Positions 1,832-9,451 are shown, numbered from the stretch's first letter. The stretch is DNA of 64,000 nt from Kitasatospora fiedleri (GCF_948472415.1 NZ_OX419519.1:5394001-5458000); one strand, 5' to 3'. Numbers and translations are program-made. The notes: generated by a model not told the origin, from the sequence alone.

Positions 1832-1850
1832 ACAGGCAACCCTTACCCGT
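1832..1850. promoter_or_regulatory. Candidate iron box (DtxR/DmdR-type operator)
   Basis: A 19-base imperfect palindrome, ACAGGCAACCCTTACCCGT, lies about 30 bases before the first siderophore gene. The two half-sites match at 6 of 9 positions, and both keep the GG..A core of the actinobacterial iron-box half-site TTAGGTTAG. Location, size and symmetry suit iron-dependent repression, but the match to consensus is weak. Confidence 0.35.
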
Positions 1851-1879
1851 AGGCAGTCACGCGGCTACAAGGAGCGGAT

Positions 1880-3640
1880 TTGGCCAGCACCCTCACCGGC
1901 GTCCCCCCGGCCGCCCGGCCCGCGGCCGGGCACCCCACCCCGGACCCGCTGCTCGACCCCGACCCGGCCGTGGCCGCCGAACACGCCGCCACCGAGAGCC
2001 TGTTGCGCTGCTGGGCCCGGGAGACCGCGGCCGAGCGCCCCGACGGCGACCTGCTGCGGATTCCGGTGCTCGGCGGCGCCGCCCAGCTGTCCGCGCCGGT
2101 GCGGCACTGGTCGGCCTGCGGCTGGCACCGGTTCGGCCCGGCCACCGTCTCCACCGGCGCCGCCGAGCACCCGGTCGACGCGGTCACCGTCGCCGCCCTG
2201 GTGGCCGGCGCCACCGGCCGCCCCGAACCCGGCCAACTCGCCGACCTGACCGCCCGGGTGGCCGACTCCTCGGCCCGCACCGCGGAGATCCTCACCCACC
2301 GCCGGGCCGCCCCCGCCGCGCCCGCCGACGCGTTCCTGCGCGCCGAGCAGTCGCTGCTGCTCGGCCACCCGCTGCACCCCACCCCGAAGAGCCGCGACGG
2401 CCTCGGCCCCGCCCAGTCCGCCGCCTACTCCCCGGAGCTGCACGGCTCGTTCCGGCTGCACTGGTGGGCCGTGCACCGCTCGCTGCTGGCCGGCGACAGC
2501 GCCACCGGCACCCCCGCCGAGCAGCTCACCGCCGACCTGTACGGCCGCCCGCTGCCCGCGGGGACGGCCGCCCTGCCGCTGCACCCCTGGCAGGCCCGCG
2601 AGCTGGCGCTGCGCCCGGCCGTCGCCGACCTGCTGGAGCAGGGACTGCTGACCGACCTCGGGCAGCACGGCGAGCCCTGGCACCCCACCAGCTCGGTGCG
2701 CACCGTCTGCCGCCCCGGCACCCCGTGGATGCTCAAGCTGTCGCTGGGCCTGCGGATCACCAACTCCCGCCGGGAGAACCTCCGCAAGGAGCTGCACCGG
2801 GGCACCGAGGTGCACCGCCTGCTGGAGTCCGGCCTGGCCGCCCAGTGGCGGGCCGCCCACCCCGGCTTCGACATCGTCCGCGACCCGGCCTGGATCGGCG
2901 TCGACCACCCCGCGCTCGGCGACCCCAACGGCCTGGACACCGTGCTGCGGCAGCTGCCGTTCGGGCCCGCCGACCGGGCGCTCTGCGTGGCCGGGCTGGT
3001 CGCCGAACAGCCCCTGGACCGGCTCGACTCGCACCTGGCCGGCGTGCTCGCCGAGCTGGCCGTCCGCACCGGCCGCCCGGTGCCGACCGTCGCCACCGAG
3101 TGGTTCCTGCGCTACCTGGACACCGTCGTGCTGCCGGTCCTCTGGCTGGACGGGCGGGCCGGCATCGCCCTGGAGGCCCACCAGCAGAACAGCCTGGTCC
3201 TGCTGGACGCCCAGGGCTGGCCCGCCGGCGGCCGCTACCGCGACAACCAGGGCTACTACTTCCGCGCCTCGCACGCCGACCGGCTGCGCGCCCGGCTGCC
3301 CGGACTCGGCGCGCACAGCGACACCTTCGTGCCCGACGCGGTCGCCGACGAGCGCTTCGCCTACTACCTCGGCATCAACCACGTGCTCGGCCTGATCGGC
3401 GCCTTCGGCTCCCAGGGCCTCGCCGACGAGCAGCTGCTGCTGGCCGCGCTGCGCCGCTTCCTGTCCGGCCCCGCCGCCACCGCCACCGGCTCCGCGCTCC
3501 CCGCCCACCTGCTGGACGCCCCCACCCTGCGCTGCAAGGCCAACCTGCTCACCCGGCTGCACGGCCTGGACGAACTGGTCGGCCCGGTCGAGACCCAGTC
3601 GGTGTACGTCGAGATCGACAACCCGGTGGCCCGGGCGTGA
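1880..3640 (+). CDS. IucA/IucC-family NRPS-independent siderophore synthetase (first of two)
   Basis: A 586-residue protein starting at TTG 1880, five bases after AAGGAG. It carries the family's ATP- and carboxylate-binding motifs in order: GHPLHPTPKSR, LHPWQ, PTSSVRTV, KLSLGLRITNSRREN, EAHQQNSLV and RDNQGYYF. NIS synthetases adenylate a citrate-type carboxylate and condense it with an amine or hydroxylamine. It is the first gene of a four-gene operon and shares one base (TGATG) with the acyltransferase gene. The motifs do not decide whether this one makes the first (IucA-like) or second (IucC-like) amide bond. The ribosome-binding site and TTG start are strong, so the start is fairly sure. 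Confidence 0.93.
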   Translation: MASTLTGVPPAARPAAGHPTPDPLLDPDPAVAAEHAATESLLRCWARETAAERPDGDLLRIPVLGGAAQLSAPVRHWSACGWHRFGPATVSTGAAEHPVDAVTVAALVAGATGRPEPGQLADLTARVADSSARTAEILTHRRAAPAAPADAFLRAEQSLLLGHPLHPTPKSRDGLGPAQSAAYSPELHGSFRLHWWAVHRSLLAGDSATGTPAEQLTADLYGRPLPAGTAALPLHPWQARELALRPAVADLLEQGLLTDLGQHGEPWHPTSSVRTVCRPGTPWMLKLSLGLRITNSRRENLRKELHRGTEVHRLLESGLAAQWRAAHPGFDIVRDPAWIGVDHPALGDPNGLDTVLRQLPFGPADRALCVAGLVAEQPLDRLDSHLAGVLAELAVRTGRPVPTVATEWFLRYLDTVVLPVLWLDGRAGIALEAHQQNSLVLLDAQGWPAGGRYRDNQGYYFRASHADRLRARLPGLGAHSDTFVPDAVADERFAYYLGINHVLGLIGAFGSQGLADEQLLLAALRRFLSGPAATATGSALPAHLLDAPTLRCKANLLTRLHGLDELVGPVETQSVYVEIDNPVARA

Positions 3641-4194
3641 TGCCCGAGACCGGCACGATACCCACCGCGGTCGGCGAACTCGTCCTGCGCACCGTGCGGC
3701 CGGCCACCGACCTGGACCTGCTCACCGGCTGGATGAACGACCCGGACACCGACCGCTGGTGGGCCCTGGCCGGCCCGCCGCGGACCACCGCGGACCACCT
3801 CGCCGCCCAGCTCGACGGCGACGGCCGCAGCCGCCCCGCGCTGGCCCTGCTCGACTCCGTACCCACCGGCTACTTCGAGCTGTACCGGGCCGACCTCGAC
3901 CCGCTGGCCGCGCACTACCCCGCCCGCCCGCACGACCTGGGCGTGCACCTGCTGCTGGCCCCCGCCGCCCGCGGCCGGGGCCTGGCCGCCCCGCTCCTCG
4001 ACGCGATCGCCACCCGGCTGCTGGAGCGCGAACCGCGCTGCACCCGGGTGCTCGCCGAACCCGACGTCCGCAACACGCCCTCCGTCCGGGCGTTCGCGCG
4101 CGCCGGGTTCGACCGCGTCGCCGACCTCGACCTGCCCGACAAGCGCGCCGCCCTGATGGTCCGCCGGCGCGCCGACACCACCGCCGATACCTAG
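3640..4194 (+). CDS. IucB-like GNAT acyltransferase (hydroxylysine/hydroxamate acylation)
   Basis: A 184-residue GNAT protein whose ATG overlaps the stop of the preceding synthetase gene by one base. It has the signature of siderophore-type acetyltransferases: YFELYRADLDPLAAHY, then DLGVHLLLAP and the acetyl-CoA loop RGRGLAAPLL, and a DVRNTPSVRAFARAGF end motif. Relatives (IucB, AlcE, RhbD) transfer an acyl group from acyl-CoA to the N-hydroxyamine made by the neighbouring monooxygenase, creating the iron-chelating hydroxamate. Six bases separate it from the hydroxylase gene, so the two are surely cotranscribed. Acyl-group specificity (acetyl or longer) cannot be read from the sequence. Confidence 0.9.
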   Translation: MPETGTIPTAVGELVLRTVRPATDLDLLTGWMNDPDTDRWWALAGPPRTTADHLAAQLDGDGRSRPALALLDSVPTGYFELYRADLDPLAAHYPARPHDLGVHLLLAPAARGRGLAAPLLDAIATRLLEREPRCTRVLAEPDVRNTPSVRAFARAGFDRVADLDLPDKRAALMVRRRADTTADT

Positions 4195-4200
4195 GACGAC

Positions 4201-5589
4201 ATGACCCCCCATGACGACACGGCGGGCCAGCAGCCCGAGCCGTACGACCTGATCGGCGTCGGCATCGGCCCGTTCAACCTCTCGCTGGCCGCGCTCGCCG
4301 ACCGGGCCGAGACCGTCAGCGCGCTGTTCCTCGACGCCCGGCCCGAGTTCCGCTGGCACCCCGGCATGCTCGTCGACGGCGCCCGGATGCAGGTCCCGTT
4401 CCTGGCCGACCTGGTCACCCTGGTCGACCCCACCAACCCCTGGTCGTTCCTCAACTACCTGCGCGACCGGCAGCGGCTGTTCCCGTTCTACTTCAGCGAG
4501 CGCTTCCAGCTGCCCCGCCGCGAGTACGACCACTACTGCCGCTGGGCCGCCGAACGGCTCCCCAACTGCCGCTTCGGGCAGCCCGTCACCGCCGTGCACT
4601 GGGACGCCGCCGACCAGCTCTACCTGGTGCACGCCGCGGGCGCCGTGCACCGGGCCCGCAACCTGGTCCTCGGCACCGGCACCGAACCCGCCCGCCCCGA
4701 GGCCTTCGCCCCGCTGCGCCGGCACCCCGCCGTCCTGCACTCCGCCGACTACCTGGAGCGGCGCCGCTCGCTCGACGCGGCGCGGGACGTCACGGTGGTC
4801 GGATCGGGCCAGTCCGGCGCCGAGGTCTTCCTCGACCTGCTCCGGCACCGGGCCGGCGACGGCACCCGGCTGCGCTGGCTCACCCGCACCCGGGCGCTGG
4901 CCCCGATGGAGTACTCCAAGCTCGGCCTGGAGCAGTTCACCCCCGACTACACCCGCTACTTCCACGGCCTGCCCGCCGACGTCCGGGACGCCCTCGTCCC
5001 CGCCCAGTGGCAGCTGCACAAGGCCGCCAGCGCCGAGACGCTCGCCGAGATCCACGACCACCTGTACGAGCGCACCGTCGGCCGCCCGATCGACGCCGAA
5101 CCGGTCGAGATCCTGCCCGGCACCGCCGTCACCGAAGCCGCCCAGGGCCCCTGCGGCGGGCTCGAACTGCACTGCCGGCACGGCGACTCCGGCCGCCGCC
5201 ACCTGGTCCGCACCGACGCCGTGGTACTGGCCACCGGCTACCGGGCGGTGCGCCCCGCCGCCCTCGACCCGATCGCCGAGCTGATCGACTGGGACGGGCA
5301 GGGCCGCTACCGGGTCGACCTCGACCACCGGGTCGCCACCCGGCCGGAACTCACCGGCGGTCTGTACGTCCAGAACGCGGAGCTGCACACTCACGGAGTC
5401 GGCACCCCGGACCTCGGGCTCGGCGCCCACCGCGCCGCCGTGATCCTCAACGCCGTCGCGGGCAAGACGCTCCACCCGCTGCCCCACCGCACCGCCTGGA
5501 CCACGTTCCTCCCGGCATCCGCCCCGCCGCCGTCGGCGACACTCCCACGACCCCAGGAAGGGACCGAGCGTGCAGCAGCCAGCCGCTGA
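4201..5589 (+). CDS. FAD-dependent L-lysine (or diamine) N-hydroxylase, IucD-like
   Basis: A 462-residue member of the siderophore N-monooxygenase family (IucD, RhbE, DesB). It opens with the FAD-binding segment DLIGVGIGPFNLSLAAL, has the NADPH-binding segment VVGSGQSGAEVFLDLL near residue 200, and the LATGYR motif in the C-terminal third. The enzyme uses NADPH, O2 and FAD to hydroxylate the terminal amine of lysine or a diamine such as cadaverine. No lysine decarboxylase (DesA-type) is encoded nearby, which favours free lysine as substrate, as in aerobactin synthesis. The 3' end overlaps the next synthetase gene by 20 bases. Confidence 0.93.
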   Translation: MTPHDDTAGQQPEPYDLIGVGIGPFNLSLAALADRAETVSALFLDARPEFRWHPGMLVDGARMQVPFLADLVTLVDPTNPWSFLNYLRDRQRLFPFYFSERFQLPRREYDHYCRWAAERLPNCRFGQPVTAVHWDAADQLYLVHAAGAVHRARNLVLGTGTEPARPEAFAPLRRHPAVLHSADYLERRRSLDAARDVTVVGSGQSGAEVFLDLLRHRAGDGTRLRWLTRTRALAPMEYSKLGLEQFTPDYTRYFHGLPADVRDALVPAQWQLHKAASAETLAEIHDHLYERTVGRPIDAEPVEILPGTAVTEAAQGPCGGLELHCRHGDSGRRHLVRTDAVVLATGYRAVRPAALDPIAELIDWDGQGRYRVDLDHRVATRPELTGGLYVQNAELHTHGVGTPDLGLGAHRAAVILNAVAGKTLHPLPHRTAWTTFLPASAPPPSATLPRPQEGTERAAASR

Positions 5590-7348
5590 CTCCGTACTCC
5601 ACCTGCCACCCCAGCTCACCACCGGGCACTGGCAGGCCGCCGGACGGGACATGCTCGCCAAACTGCTCGGCGAATTCGCCTACGAGGAACTGCTCCACCC
5701 GCGGCCCGACGGCGACGGCCGCCACCTGGTGCGGCTCCCGGACGCCGACTACCGGTTCGCCGCCCGCCGGGGCGCGTACGGGAGCTGGCGGGTCGACCCG
5801 GCGTCGATCGAGGGCGGCGACGACCCGCTGCGCTTCCTCCAGCAGGCCCGGCACGTCCTCGGGATGGGCGGCGACACCACCGGCCACCTGGTTCGCGAAC
5901 TCACCGCCACCCTGATCGCCGACGCCCACCTGCGGGCCACCGCGCTGAGCGCCGCCGAACTCGCCGACCTCGACCACGTCGCCCTGGAGGGCCGGCAGAC
6001 CGGCCACCCGTGGATCGTCGCCAACAAGGGCCGGATCGGCTTCTCCGCCACCGACGCGGCCGGCTGGACCCCGGAGGCCCGGCTGCCCCGCACCCTGCCC
6101 TGGCTCGCCGTGCACAAGAGCCTGGCCGAGTTCCGCGGCGACCCGGCCATCTACCGCACCGAGCTCGACCCCGCCTTCCGCACCCAACTGGGCGAGCGCG
6201 CCGATGAGTTCTGGCTGCTCCCGGTGCACCCCTGGCAGTGGGACGAGACCGTGGTCGGCCTGTTCGCGCCGTGGATCGCCGACGGCCGGATCGTCCCGCT
6301 GCCCAGCGACGGCGACCTCCGGCTGCCCCAGCAGTCCATCCGCTCCTTCTTCAACCTCAGCCGCCCCGACCGCTGCACCGTCAAACTGCCGCTCGCCATC
6401 CTCAACACCCTGGTCTGGCGCGGCCTGCCCACCGAACGCGCCCTCGCCGCGCCCGCCGTCACCGCCTGGATCCACCGCCTGCGCGACCAGGACCCGTACC
6501 TGCGCGACGAGTGCCGGGTGGTGCTGCTCGGCGAGATCGCCTCGGTCACCGTCGAGCACCCGCTGTACCGGGACCTGCCCGACGCGCCCTACCAGTACAA
6601 GGAACTGCTCGGCGCGATCTGGCGCGAACCGCTCGGCCGCCACCTGGAGCCCGGCGAGCGGGCCCGCACGCTGGCCGCGCTGCTGCAGACCGGCTCGGAC
6701 GGGCGGGCGCTGGCCGCCGAACTCGTCGCCCGCTCCGGCCTGGCGCCCCGGGAGTGGGTGAGCCGGCTGTTCGCCGCGATGCTGCCGCCGCTGCTGCACT
6801 TCCTGTACCGCTACGGGCTGGTCTTCTCCCCGCACGGCGAGAACGCCATCGTGGTCTTCGACCAGGACGACGTCCCGGTCCGGCTCGCGGTCAAGGACTT
6901 CGTCGACGACGTCAACCTCAGCGACCGGCCGCTGCCCGAACTCGCCGACCTGCCCGCCGACATCGCCGGGGTGCTCAACCGGGAGGACCCGGACTACCTC
7001 TGCCAGTTCCTGCACTCCGGCCTGTTCATCGGCGTCTACCGCTACCTCGCCCCGCTGCTGGAGGAGCAACTCGACCTGCCGGAGCCGGAGTTCTGGGAGC
7101 TGCTGCGCGCGGAGATCCTGGGCTGCCAGCGGCGCTTCCCCGAGCTCGCGGACCGCCACCGGCTGTTCGACCTGTTCAAGCCCCGGATCGACCGGCTCTG
7201 CCTGAACCGCAACCGCCTGCTGCTCGACGGCTACCGGGACCGCCCCGACCGCCCGCACGCCGCCGTCCACGGCCAGGTCGACAACCCGCTGCACAGCACC
7301 GCGCAGCTCCCCGTCCAGCGGGTCAGGATTGTCAGTCCCGCCCCGTAG
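5570..7348 (+). CDS. IucA/IucC-family NRPS-independent siderophore synthetase (second)
   Basis: A 592-residue NIS synthetase starting at GTG 5570 after GGAAGGGACC, inside the end of the hydroxylase gene. Family motifs are GHPWIVANKGRIGFS, LPVHPWQWDE, SIRSFFNLSRPDRCTVKL, SPHGENAIVVF and KDFVDDVNLSD, and it ends with the FKPRIDRLCLNRNRLL segment. It is clearly diverged from the first synthetase of the operon, as expected for enzymes forming the first and second amide bonds on citrate. Only 12 bases separate its stop from the dinG-like start, so read-through into the helicase gene is possible. No transporter, reductase or esterase gene accompanies the cluster in this window. Confidence 0.93.
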   Translation: MQQPAADSVLHLPPQLTTGHWQAAGRDMLAKLLGEFAYEELLHPRPDGDGRHLVRLPDADYRFAARRGAYGSWRVDPASIEGGDDPLRFLQQARHVLGMGGDTTGHLVRELTATLIADAHLRATALSAAELADLDHVALEGRQTGHPWIVANKGRIGFSATDAAGWTPEARLPRTLPWLAVHKSLAEFRGDPAIYRTELDPAFRTQLGERADEFWLLPVHPWQWDETVVGLFAPWIADGRIVPLPSDGDLRLPQQSIRSFFNLSRPDRCTVKLPLAILNTLVWRGLPTERALAAPAVTAWIHRLRDQDPYLRDECRVVLLGEIASVTVEHPLYRDLPDAPYQYKELLGAIWREPLGRHLEPGERARTLAALLQTGSDGRALAAELVARSGLAPREWVSRLFAAMLPPLLHFLYRYGLVFSPHGENAIVVFDQDDVPVRLAVKDFVDDVNLSDRPLPELADLPADIAGVLNREDPDYLCQFLHSGLFIGVYRYLAPLLEEQLDLPEPEFWELLRAEILGCQRRFPELADRHRLFDLFKPRIDRLCLNRNRLLLDGYRDRPDRPHAAVHGQVDNPLHSTAQLPVQRVRIVSPAP

Positions 7349-7360
7349 GCTGGGGGCGTC

Positions 7361-9451
7361 ATGACGAACGACACCATCGAACCCCTGCCCGGCGGCCCGG
7401 AGACGGCCGAACCCGCCGCGCCGGTCCCCGCCTCCCGCCTGCCCGAGCTGCTGCACGCCGCCGTCGCCGCCGTCGGCGGCGTGGAGCGGCCCGGGCAGGT
7501 CCGGATGGCCGAAGCCGTCTCCGCCGCCGTCGACGAGGGCGAGCACCTGCTCGTCCAGGCCGGCACCGGCACCGGCAAGTCCCTCGCCTACCTGGTGCCC
7601 GCCCTCGCCCACGGCGACCGGGTGGTGGTCGCCACCGCGACGCTGGCCCTCCAGCGCCAGCTCGTCGAACGCGACCTGCCGCGCACCGTCGAGGCCCTGC
7701 ACCCGGTGCTGCGCCGCCGCCCGCTGTTCGCCATGCTCAAGGGCCGCTCCAACTACCTGTGCCTGCACCGGGCCAACGAGGGCACCCCGAGCGACGAGGG
7801 CGAGGGCCTGTTCGACCCGGTCGACGCGCTCGGCGGCCCCGCCGGCAAGCTCGGCCAGGACGTGCTCCGGCTGCGCGAGTGGGCCGAGGAGACCGAGACC
7901 GGCGACCGCGACGACCTCACCCCCGGCGTCTCCGACCGGGCCTGGGCCCAGCTCGCCGTGACCTCCAAGGAGTGCCTGGGCGCCTCCCGCTGCGCCTACG
8001 GCGAGGAGTGCTTCGCCGAGCTGGCCCGCGAGCGCGCCAAACTGGCCGACGTGGTGGTCACCAACCACGCCATGCTCGCGATCGACGCGATCGAGGGCGC
8101 CCCCGTGCTGCCCGAGCACGGCCTGCTGATCATCGACGAGGCCCACGAGCTGGTGAACCGGGTCACCGGCGCGGCCACCGCCGAACTCACCGTCGGCGCG
8201 GTCAACCGGGCCGTCAAGCGCGCCGCGAAGCTCGCCAACGAGAAGGCGGTGGACGCGCTCCAGGCCGCCGCCGAGAACTTCCACGGCCTGATGGAGACTG
8301 CCCAGCCCGGCCAGGTCGACGAACTCCCCGAGTACCTCGGCTACGCGGTGGCCGGCATCCGGGACGCCTGCCGCCAGGTCATCACCTCGCTCGGCGAGAC
8401 CCGCGACAAGGGCCTCACCGACGAGGACGCCGTCCGCAAGCAGGCGATGGCCTCCGCCGAGACGCTGCACGAGACCGCGGACCGGCTGCTCACCGGCTCC
8501 GAGTACGACGTCGTCTGGATCGAGCGCTCCGACCGCTACGGCGGGGGCACCGCCTCGCTGCGGGTCGCCCCGCTCTCCGTCTCCGGCCTGCTGCGGGAGA
8601 ACCTGTACCGGGACCGCTCGGTCGTCCTCACCTCCGCCACCCTCAAGCTCGGCGGCGACTTCAACGGCGTCGCCGCCTCGCTCGGCCTGCCCGGCGAGAC
8701 CAGGCTCCCCGACCACCGCACCCCCGACGGCCCGGCCGCCGAGACCGGGGAGGACGCCCCGCCGTACTGGCGCGGCCTGGACGTGGGCTCCCCGTTCACC
8801 TACCCCAAGCAGGGCATCCTCTACGTCGCCAAGCACCTCCCGCCGCCCGGCCGGGAGCCCGACCGGCCGGAGATGCTGGACGAGCTCGCCGAGCTGATCG
8901 GCGCGGCCGGCGGCCGCACCCTGGGCCTGTTCTCCTCGATGCGGGCCGCCCAGACCGCCGCCGAGAAGCTCCGCGAACGGCTGGACGTGCCGATCCTGCT
9001 CCAGGGCGAGGACACCCTGGGCGAGCTGATCCGGGCCTTCGCCTCCGACGCCGGGACCTGCCTGTTCGGCACCCTCTCGCTCTGGCAGGGCGTCGACGTG
9101 CCCGGCTCCGCCTGCCAGCTCGTCGTGATGGACCGCATTCCCTTCCCGCGGCCCGACGACCCGCTGATGAGCGCCCGGCAGAAGGACGTCGAGGCGCGCG
9201 GCGGCAACGGCTTCATGGCCGTCGCCGCCACCCACGCCGCGCTGCTGATGGCCCAGGGCGCCGGCCGGCTGGTCCGGGCCGCCGACGACAAGGGCGTCGT
9301 CGCCGTCCTCGACCCGCGGCTGGCCACCGCCCGCTACGGCGGCTTCTTCCGCTCCTCCATGCCGGACTTCTGGTACACCACCGACCGCAACCAGGTCCGC
9401 CGCTCGCTCGCCGCGATCGACGCCTCGGCCCCGCCGGTCAGGCCGCGCTAG
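7361..9451 (+). CDS. dinG: ATP-dependent DNA helicase, DinG/XPD family
   Basis: A 696-residue superfamily 2 helicase. Walker A is QAGTGTGKSLAYLVPAL near residue 67, the DEAH box is LLIIDEAHEL near residue 260, and four cysteines between them (in SNYLCLH, KECLGASRC and EECFAEL) fit the Fe-S cluster of the XPD/DinG group. The second helicase domain has LTSATLKLGG, QGVDVPGSACQ and QGAGRLVR. Family members unwind 5'-overhang, D-loop and R-loop substrates in DNA repair. The gene faces lexA tail to tail; the context of lexA and nrdR supports a repair role, although no SOS box was seen upstream of this gene. Confidence 0.9.
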   Translation: MTNDTIEPLPGGPETAEPAAPVPASRLPELLHAAVAAVGGVERPGQVRMAEAVSAAVDEGEHLLVQAGTGTGKSLAYLVPALAHGDRVVVATATLALQRQLVERDLPRTVEALHPVLRRRPLFAMLKGRSNYLCLHRANEGTPSDEGEGLFDPVDALGGPAGKLGQDVLRLREWAEETETGDRDDLTPGVSDRAWAQLAVTSKECLGASRCAYGEECFAELARERAKLADVVVTNHAMLAIDAIEGAPVLPEHGLLIIDEAHELVNRVTGAATAELTVGAVNRAVKRAAKLANEKAVDALQAAAENFHGLMETAQPGQVDELPEYLGYAVAGIRDACRQVITSLGETRDKGLTDEDAVRKQAMASAETLHETADRLLTGSEYDVVWIERSDRYGGGTASLRVAPLSVSGLLRENLYRDRSVVLTSATLKLGGDFNGVAASLGLPGETRLPDHRTPDGPAAETGEDAPPYWRGLDVGSPFTYPKQGILYVAKHLPPPGREPDRPEMLDELAELIGAAGGRTLGLFSSMRAAQTAAEKLRERLDVPILLQGEDTLGELIRAFASDAGTCLFGTLSLWQGVDVPGSACQLVVMDRIPFPRPDDPLMSARQKDVEARGGNGFMAVAATHAALLMAQGAGRLVRAADDKGVVAVLDPRLATARYGGFFRSSMPDFWYTTDRNQVRRSLAAIDASAPPVRPR

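What the first reader, a model, noticed from the sequence alone, without database searches (positions are those of the whole stretch)
1832..7348. Aerobactin-type gene set in an actinobacterial core location
The operon holds both NIS synthetases, an IucB-like acyltransferase and an IucD-like hydroxylase: one enzyme for each step of a citrate-hydroxamate siderophore. No decarboxylase is present, unlike the desferrioxamine operon. This predicts a dihydroxamate built on lysine and citrate, or a variant with another acyl group, from a Gram-positive mycelial organism.
Basis: partly seen in the sequence, partly recalled or inferred. Interest (0 to 1): 0.6.

Follow-up and report, generated by a model that had tools for sequence, protein, structure and literature searches.

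The report
Split schizokinen-type siderophore operon in Kitasatospora
These four genes are the assembly half of a bacterial iron-scavenging molecule that most likely resembles schizokinen (built on 1,3-diaminopropane) rather than aerobactin (built on lysine); the two genes that make its building block sit about 1.1 million bases away on the same chromosome, apparently borrowed from a different siderophore cluster.

Summary
Observation confirmed: window 1880-7348 holds type-A NIS synthetase, GNAT acyltransferase, N-monooxygenase, type-C NIS synthetase, in the genus-wide hflX...dinG-lexA-nrdR slot. The lysine/aerobactin inference is not supported. NIS_A is closer to RhbC (44% over the aligned part) than IucA (29%); the hydroxylase is closer to RhbE (44%) than IucD (37%). 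"No decarboxylase" holds only locally: the genome carries a diaminobutyrate aminotransferase + RhbB-like decarboxylase pair 1.13 Mb away, behind a strong IdeR/DmdR-type iron box. In related genera the same slot holds the whole order dat-ddc-NIS_A-GNAT-NMO-NIS_C, identical to rhizobactin-1021/schizokinen operons (S. meliloti and Halorussus loci checked). In Kitasatospora 70/70 genomes have NIS_A, 69/70 ddc, and 66/70 dat directly beside ddc. Across Streptomycetaceae the missing pieces are complementary: what the slot lacks is found elsewhere. The trans ddc does not descend from the slot ddc; it clusters (100/100) with other complete clusters, so the operon seems to have lost its own precursor genes and uses replacements. 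Best reading: a split schizokinen-type pathway. No des operon exists in this genome. The product is untested; the acyl group is open. New variant of a known kind.

The parts
1834..1848 (.). degenerate iron-box-like palindrome AGGCAACCCTTACCC upstream of the operon; intact AGGTAACCCTTACCT in many other Kitasatospora
   Evidence: 1 match with up to 2 mismatches in 64 kb, 0.01 expected by chance; position conserved upstream of NIS_A in many relatives
1880..3640 (+). NIS synthetase type A (IucA/RhbC class): expected to couple the first hydroxamate arm to citrate
   Evidence: Pfam PF04183/PF06276; PDB best hit IucA 178 bits; tblastn 44% to S. meliloti, 29% to IucA; 63-64% to intact slot operons
3640..4194 (+). 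GNAT N-acyltransferase (IucB/RhbD class)
   Evidence: Acetyltransf_8 152.6 bits; MbtK C-terminal domain in PDB; 38% Halorussus, 33% S. meliloti, 31% DesC
4201..5589 (+). flavin N-monooxygenase of the diamine type (RhbE/DesB/DfoA/putrescine N-hydroxylase group)
   Evidence: Lys_Orn_oxgnase 380 bits; PDB hits monooxygenase 6xbb, DfoA 5o8p, putrescine N-hydroxylase 7us3 well above lysine MbtG; 67% to intact slot copy; vertical in tree
5570..7348 (+). NIS synthetase type C (IucC/RhbF class): expected to add the second arm
   Evidence: PDB best hit IucC 333 bits, DesD/AlcC about 300; outside the DesD clade, with slot and rhb-like copies, 100/100
7361..9451 (+). dinG helicase, context gene (not pathway): starts 12 bp after the NIS_C stop and marks the slot

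Best explanation
The operon is the assembly module (rhbCDEF equivalent) of a schizokinen-type dihydroxamate siderophore pathway whose precursor module (rhbAB equivalent) lies 1.13 Mb away. Inferred route: dat (C1:6528831) makes L-2,4-diaminobutyrate from aspartate semialdehyde and glutamate; ddc (C1:6530269) decarboxylates it to 1,3-diaminopropane; the window's NMO (4201-5589) N-hydroxylates one amine; the GNAT (3640-4194) acylates it, probably with acetyl; NIS_A (1880-3640) joins one arm to citrate; NIS_C (5570-7348) adds the second. Iron limitation is expected to switch on both loci through IdeR/DmdR-type boxes. Shown here: gene content, homology, gene order, conservation, complementary splitting, boxes. 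Inferred: every reaction and the product. The trans dat-ddc is not the slot's original pair but comes from a different, related cluster lineage.
For: (1) Intact slots dat-ddc-NIS_A-GNAT-NMO-NIS_C between hflX and dinG in L140, L126, L059, L061 match the order of the S. meliloti locus L097 and annotated Halorussus L099. (2) Own genome has dat (TIGR00709, 513 bits, cut-off 402) next to ddc (best NCBIfam family RhbB DABA decarboxylase, 328 bits). (3) Genus: NIS_A 70/70, ddc 69/70, dat-ddc adjacent 66/70, 0.74-3.25 Mb from the operon where on one contig; the pair persists where no other NIS_A-like cluster was found. (4) Complementary splitting in the family: slot NIS_A-GNAT-NIS_C goes with trans dat-ddc-NMO; slot NIS_A-GNAT-NMO-NIS_C with trans dat-ddc. 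(5) Iron box 3 mismatches from consensus in front of dat (L095:7791-7809), conserved in Kitasatospora; none within 6 mismatches in the 64 kb window and 34 kb upstream. (6) 44% to RhbC against 29% to IucA; 43.6% to RhbE against 37% to IucD. (7) The six-gene Haloferax volcanii operon is required for siderophore production, schizokinen proposed (PMC7407949).
Against: No chemistry. ddc scores far below the RhbB equivalog cut-off (328 of 900), so its substrate is inferred from the dat neighbour. The slot box is degraded in this strain. 1,3-diaminopropane could serve other uses. Some genomes kept the slot but lost NIS_C (L031, L032, Streptacidiphilus), so the slot product may vary. Genus co-occurrence has almost no contrast (nearly all have everything).
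Confidence: 0.82

Rival explanations
1. Aerobactin or a lysine-based analogue: the hydroxylase acts on L-lysine and no decarboxylase is needed.
For: No decarboxylase in the operon; PDB best hits of the synthetases are IucA and IucC, although RhbC/RhbF have no solved structure in that list.
Against: Intact relatives carry dat and ddc; dat-ddc conserved with an iron box; clearly lower identity to IucA and IucD than to RhbC and RhbE; the hydroxylase groups by score with diamine hydroxylases.
Confidence: 0.06
2. A citrate dihydroxamate on another diamine (cadaverine or putrescine), the trans decarboxylase acting as a lysine or ornithine decarboxylase.
For: ddc is about 44% identical to DesA-like enzymes of the same fold and below the RhbB cut-off; hydroxylase is 43% to both DesB and RhbE.
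Against: ddc is coupled to a diaminobutyrate aminotransferase in 66/70 genomes, useless for cadaverine or putrescine; true des operons are a separate set.
Confidence: 0.06
3. Same 1,3-diaminopropane-citrate core but with a longer or other acyl group (acinetoferrin, synechobactin or rhizobactin-1021 type). This is a sub-case of the best explanation, not exclusive of it.
For: NIS_A is 39% to AcbA of an acinetoferrin locus; GNAT similarity does not fix the acyl donor.
Against: No separate lipid-adding gene beside the operon; the six-gene set is the schizokinen set (PMC7407949).
Confidence: 0.2
4. dat-ddc serves polyamine or another pathway and the slot operon is a decaying relic.
For: Slots of other genera have lost NMO, ddc or NIS_C; the slot box is degraded here.
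Against: All four genes are intact with no internal stop and conserved in the genus; iron box on dat-ddc; complementary splitting.
Confidence: 0.05

Closest known systems
Rhizobactin 1021 operon rhbABCDEF (Sinorhizobium meliloti)
   Same: All six functions and the order dat-ddc-NIS_A-GNAT-NMO-NIS_C match the S. meliloti locus L097 when the slot is intact; schizokinen is described as its intermediate (PMC6562677).
   Different: In the window the first two genes are missing and sit 1.13 Mb away, from another lineage; no lipid-adding gene, receptor or importer beside the operon.
Haloferax volcanii/Halorussus six-gene schizokinen operon (HVO_B0041-B0046)
   Same: Same six enzymes and, in Halorussus, the same order; schizokinen proposed (PMC7407949).
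   Different: One six-gene transcript there; two loci here.
Aerobactin operon iucABCD
   Same: Type A + type C NIS, GNAT, N-monooxygenase, no decarboxylase in the operon.
   Different: Order differs (iucA-B-C-D by knowledge; here A, B, D, C equivalents); identities lower; precursor genes for a diamine exist elsewhere in this genome.
Desferrioxamine operon desABCD
   Same: Related hydroxylase, GNAT and type C NIS.
   Different: No type A NIS; DesD 36%, DesB 43%, DesC 31%; DesD outside the clade; absent from this genome.
S. coelicolor 'putative siderophore' SCO5799-SCO5801
   Same: Probably the same slot; described only as a putative siderophore synthetase cluster (PMC7324645, PMC3224560). That it is dat-NIS_A-GNAT beside dinG is my recollection plus the architecture of unnamed relatives.
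   Different: Lacks ddc, NMO and often NIS_C in the slot; no iron box found in those slots.

Membership tests
Schizokinen / rhizobactin-1021 type pathway | type A NIS, type C NIS, GNAT and diamine-type N-monooxygenase together | tested here: met
Schizokinen / rhizobactin-1021 type pathway | diaminobutyrate aminotransferase and diaminobutyrate decarboxylase in the genome | tested here: met
   dat over its cut-off; ddc best to the RhbB model but under that model's cut-off
Schizokinen / rhizobactin-1021 type pathway | all six genes in one cluster | tested here: not met
   precursor pair 1.13 Mb away; met in intact slots of relatives. Hence filed as a variant, not a plain member
Schizokinen / rhizobactin-1021 type pathway | product is the bis-acetylhydroxamate of 1,3-diaminopropane and citrate | not testable with these tools
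   needs LC-MS/NMR
Aerobactin pathway | IucA/IucC/IucB/IucD homologues | tested here: met
   all four classes present, but only 29-37% to IucA and IucD
Aerobactin pathway | hydroxylase specific for L-lysine | tested here: inconclusive
   sequence scores favour diamine hydroxylases; no assay and no IucD in the trees
Aerobactin pathway | no diamine-supplying genes needed | tested here: inconclusive
   iron-boxed dat-ddc pair conserved in the genus
Desferrioxamine pathway | DesA-DesB-DesC-DesD, single type C NIS in the DesD clade | tested here: not met
   NIS_C outside the DesD clade at 100/100; type A NIS present; only two NIS genes in the genome
NIS type A (citrate-first) | groups with IucA/AcsD rather than IucC/DesD | tested here: met
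   178 bits IucA, 83 AcsD, 53 IucC, 30 DesD
NIS type C | groups with IucC/AlcC/DesD rather than IucA | tested here: met
   333 bits IucC, about 300 DesD/AlcC, 31 IucA

The most novel reading that the evidence does not exclude
Across Streptomycetaceae one ancestral schizokinen-type operon in the hflX-dinG slot has been taken apart differently in each genus, the lost enzymes being supplied by unlinked copies of other descent (dat-ddc, ddc-NMO or dat-ddc-NMO). The uncharacterised SCO5799-5801-type clusters of Streptomyces would then be the assembly half of a two-locus pathway that cluster-based genome mining misses.
Probability: 0.45. Interest if true: 0.68.

Novelty: new variant of a known kind. 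Interest (0 to 1): 0.47.

Why it matters
It shows how the absence of a gene from a cluster can mislead structure prediction (lysine/aerobactin instead of 1,3-diaminopropane/schizokinen). It gives a testable two-locus assignment for a siderophore operon present in all 70 Kitasatospora genomes searched, and a concrete hypothesis for the long-orphan NIS cluster of Streptomyces. The complementary splitting is a natural experiment in pathway fragmentation and replacement.

Tried and rejected
Aerobactin: rejected on identities and precursor genes. Desferrioxamine: rejected after fetching five true des operons from Kitasatospora. I first took the Streptomyces-type ddc-NMO pairs for DesA-DesB; reading the loci showed no DesC/DesD beside them, so they are a separate pair. 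I considered that trans dat-ddc belongs to a second NIS cluster found beside it in some Kitasatospora (L100, L102, L103); in G041 that cluster is far from dat-ddc (L105, L106), and it was not found in several genomes that keep dat-ddc, so it is not its necessary partner. The idea that dat-ddc simply moved out of the slot was rejected by the tree. Sigma-70 promoter and terminator scan found nothing. Other decarboxylase folds (PF01276, PF02784) were not searched. Literature for SCO2016/SCO2017 gave nothing. Region L004 was fetched but only used for the iron-box background.

Full report
What is there. The window lies at G000:C1:5394001-5458000 of an 8.07 Mb genome whose closest named relatives are Kitasatospora (96% identical hydroxylase in L015, 88-93% in several other Kitasatospora). 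At 1880-7348 four + strand genes overlap or nearly abut: NIS_A, GNAT, NMO, NIS_C, followed 12 bp later by dinG, then lexA and nrdR. Upstream are miaB, miaA, dapF, a relA-like gene, hflX and two trypsin-like genes on the other strand (names by reading the translations). Domains are unambiguous. NIS_A is type A (IucA 178 bits, DesD 30 bits) and NIS_C type C (IucC 333, DesD and AlcC about 300, IucA 31). The genome has only these two IucA_IucC genes, so no desferrioxamine operon.

Why lysine is unlikely. tblastn against plasmid records gives NIS_A 43.8% to S. meliloti, 39% to the acinetoferrin gene AcbA, but 29% to IucA; the hydroxylase gives 43.6% to S. meliloti and 37% to IucD. In the PDB list the hydroxylase scores 322-343 bits with monooxygenase 6xbb, DfoA and a putrescine N-hydroxylase, 175 with lysine hydroxylase MbtG. 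These are scores, not a substrate test.

The missing precursor genes. A search for PLP decarboxylases found a gene at C1:6530269 whose best family is the RhbB diaminobutyrate decarboxylase (328 bits; the curated cut-off is 900, so membership by that model is not met). Directly upstream, at C1:6528831, lies a diaminobutyrate-2-oxoglutarate transaminase (TIGR00709, 513 bits, cut-off 402). The pair is 1.13 Mb from the operon. In the genus 70/70 genomes have NIS_A, 69/70 ddc, and dat lies beside ddc in 66/70; the four exceptions are drafts with 460-1290 contigs. Where both loci are on one contig (33 genomes) they are 0.74-3.25 Mb apart.

The same slot elsewhere. In Embleya, Yinghuangia, a Sporichthyaceae bin and two unnamed genera (L140, L126) the hflX-dinG slot holds ddc-NIS_A-GNAT-NMO-NIS_C, with dat in front in all but the Sporichthyaceae bin, where I found none. 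The six-gene order is that of the S. meliloti locus (L097) and of an annotated Halorussus plasmid (L099). In Haloferax the six genes form one operon; it is required for siderophore production, with schizokinen proposed as the product (PMC7407949). Schizokinen is an intermediate of rhizobactin 1021 (PMC6562677).

Complementary splitting. I took the positions printed for 111 genomes of 16 other genera of the family and sorted them by distance. Intact-slot genera have hydroxylase and decarboxylase in the slot. Genus g12 has NIS_A-GNAT-NIS_C in the slot and dat-ddc-NMO elsewhere (L110, L135, L139). Kitasatospora has NIS_A-GNAT-NMO-NIS_C in the slot and dat-ddc elsewhere. Caveats: positions were copied by hand, the printed lists are truncated, and only the best match per genome was used.

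History. In the decarboxylase tree the Kitasatospora trans ddc fall with complete dat-ddc-NIS_A-NMO-NIS_C clusters of Nonomuraea, Streptosporangium and Streptomyces (100/100), apart from slot ddc; the window's hydroxylase stays with slot copies. So the slot's own dat-ddc were lost and the pair now present came from another cluster lineage. Which came first cannot be told. Real des operons in other Kitasatospora (L153, L154, L156-L158) are separate: DesD forms its own clade against all rhb-like NIS_C (100/100).

Regulation. Against the IdeR/DmdR consensus TTAGGTTAGGCTAACCTAA (from knowledge), the dat promoter carries TAAAGTTAGGCTTACCTAA at L095:7791-7809, about 20 bp before the start; nothing within 6 mismatches occurs in the 64 kb window or in the 34 kb fetched upstream of it. 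It is conserved in the Kitasatospora trans loci looked at, except L141. The slot operon has a weaker palindrome AGGTAACCCTTACCT in many Kitasatospora; here it is degraded to AGGCAACCCTTACCC at 1834-1848 (0.01 expected by chance). True des operons have boxes with 1-2 mismatches, a positive control; slots and ddc-NMO pairs of the g7/g10 type have none, so the iron-regulation argument does not extend to them.

Conclusion. The best-supported reading is a schizokinen-type pathway split over two loci. The enzymes' substrates, the acyl group and the product are inferred. A 2026 survey tentatively detected schizokinen in Streptomyces extracts (PMC13136089), which fits but proves nothing for this strain. 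S. coelicolor SCO5799-5801 is described only as a putative siderophore cluster; linking it to this slot rests on my memory of its gene order and on unnamed relatives.

Noticed in passing
L031:9338-11296 and the same place in L032: Two Kitasatospora relatives have GNAT and hydroxylase fused in one reading frame (652 aa in L031) and no NIS_C before dinG.
   Followed up: partly
L111:15347-16234, L049:11458-12306: In Streptacidiphilus-type slots a carbon-nitrogen hydrolase (nitrilase/amidase family) stands where NIS_C is expected; Embleya and Yinghuangia have it in addition to NIS_C.
   Followed up: partly
L100:9104-14875, L102:9164-14971, L106:4949-10744: Many other Kitasatospora carry a second NIS pair with an SbnH-like PLP decarboxylase and an MFS gene, possibly a carboxylate siderophore; the window's genome lacks it.
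   Followed up: partly
L130:3771-6571, L131:3317-6239, L132:8569-11378: Streptomyces-type genomes keep a free-standing ddc-NMO pair near a pyruvate kinase gene, with no siderophore synthetase beside it and no iron box; function unassigned.
   Followed up: partly
window 7346-7363: dinG starts 12 bp after the NIS_C stop, so the helicase may be co-transcribed with the siderophore operon.
   Followed up: no
G000:C1:714988-716028 and 1787685-1788701 (L011, L012): Two more N-monooxygenases of the ornithine/lysine family in the own genome, far from the window type in the tree; probably parts of other siderophore clusters.
   Followed up: no
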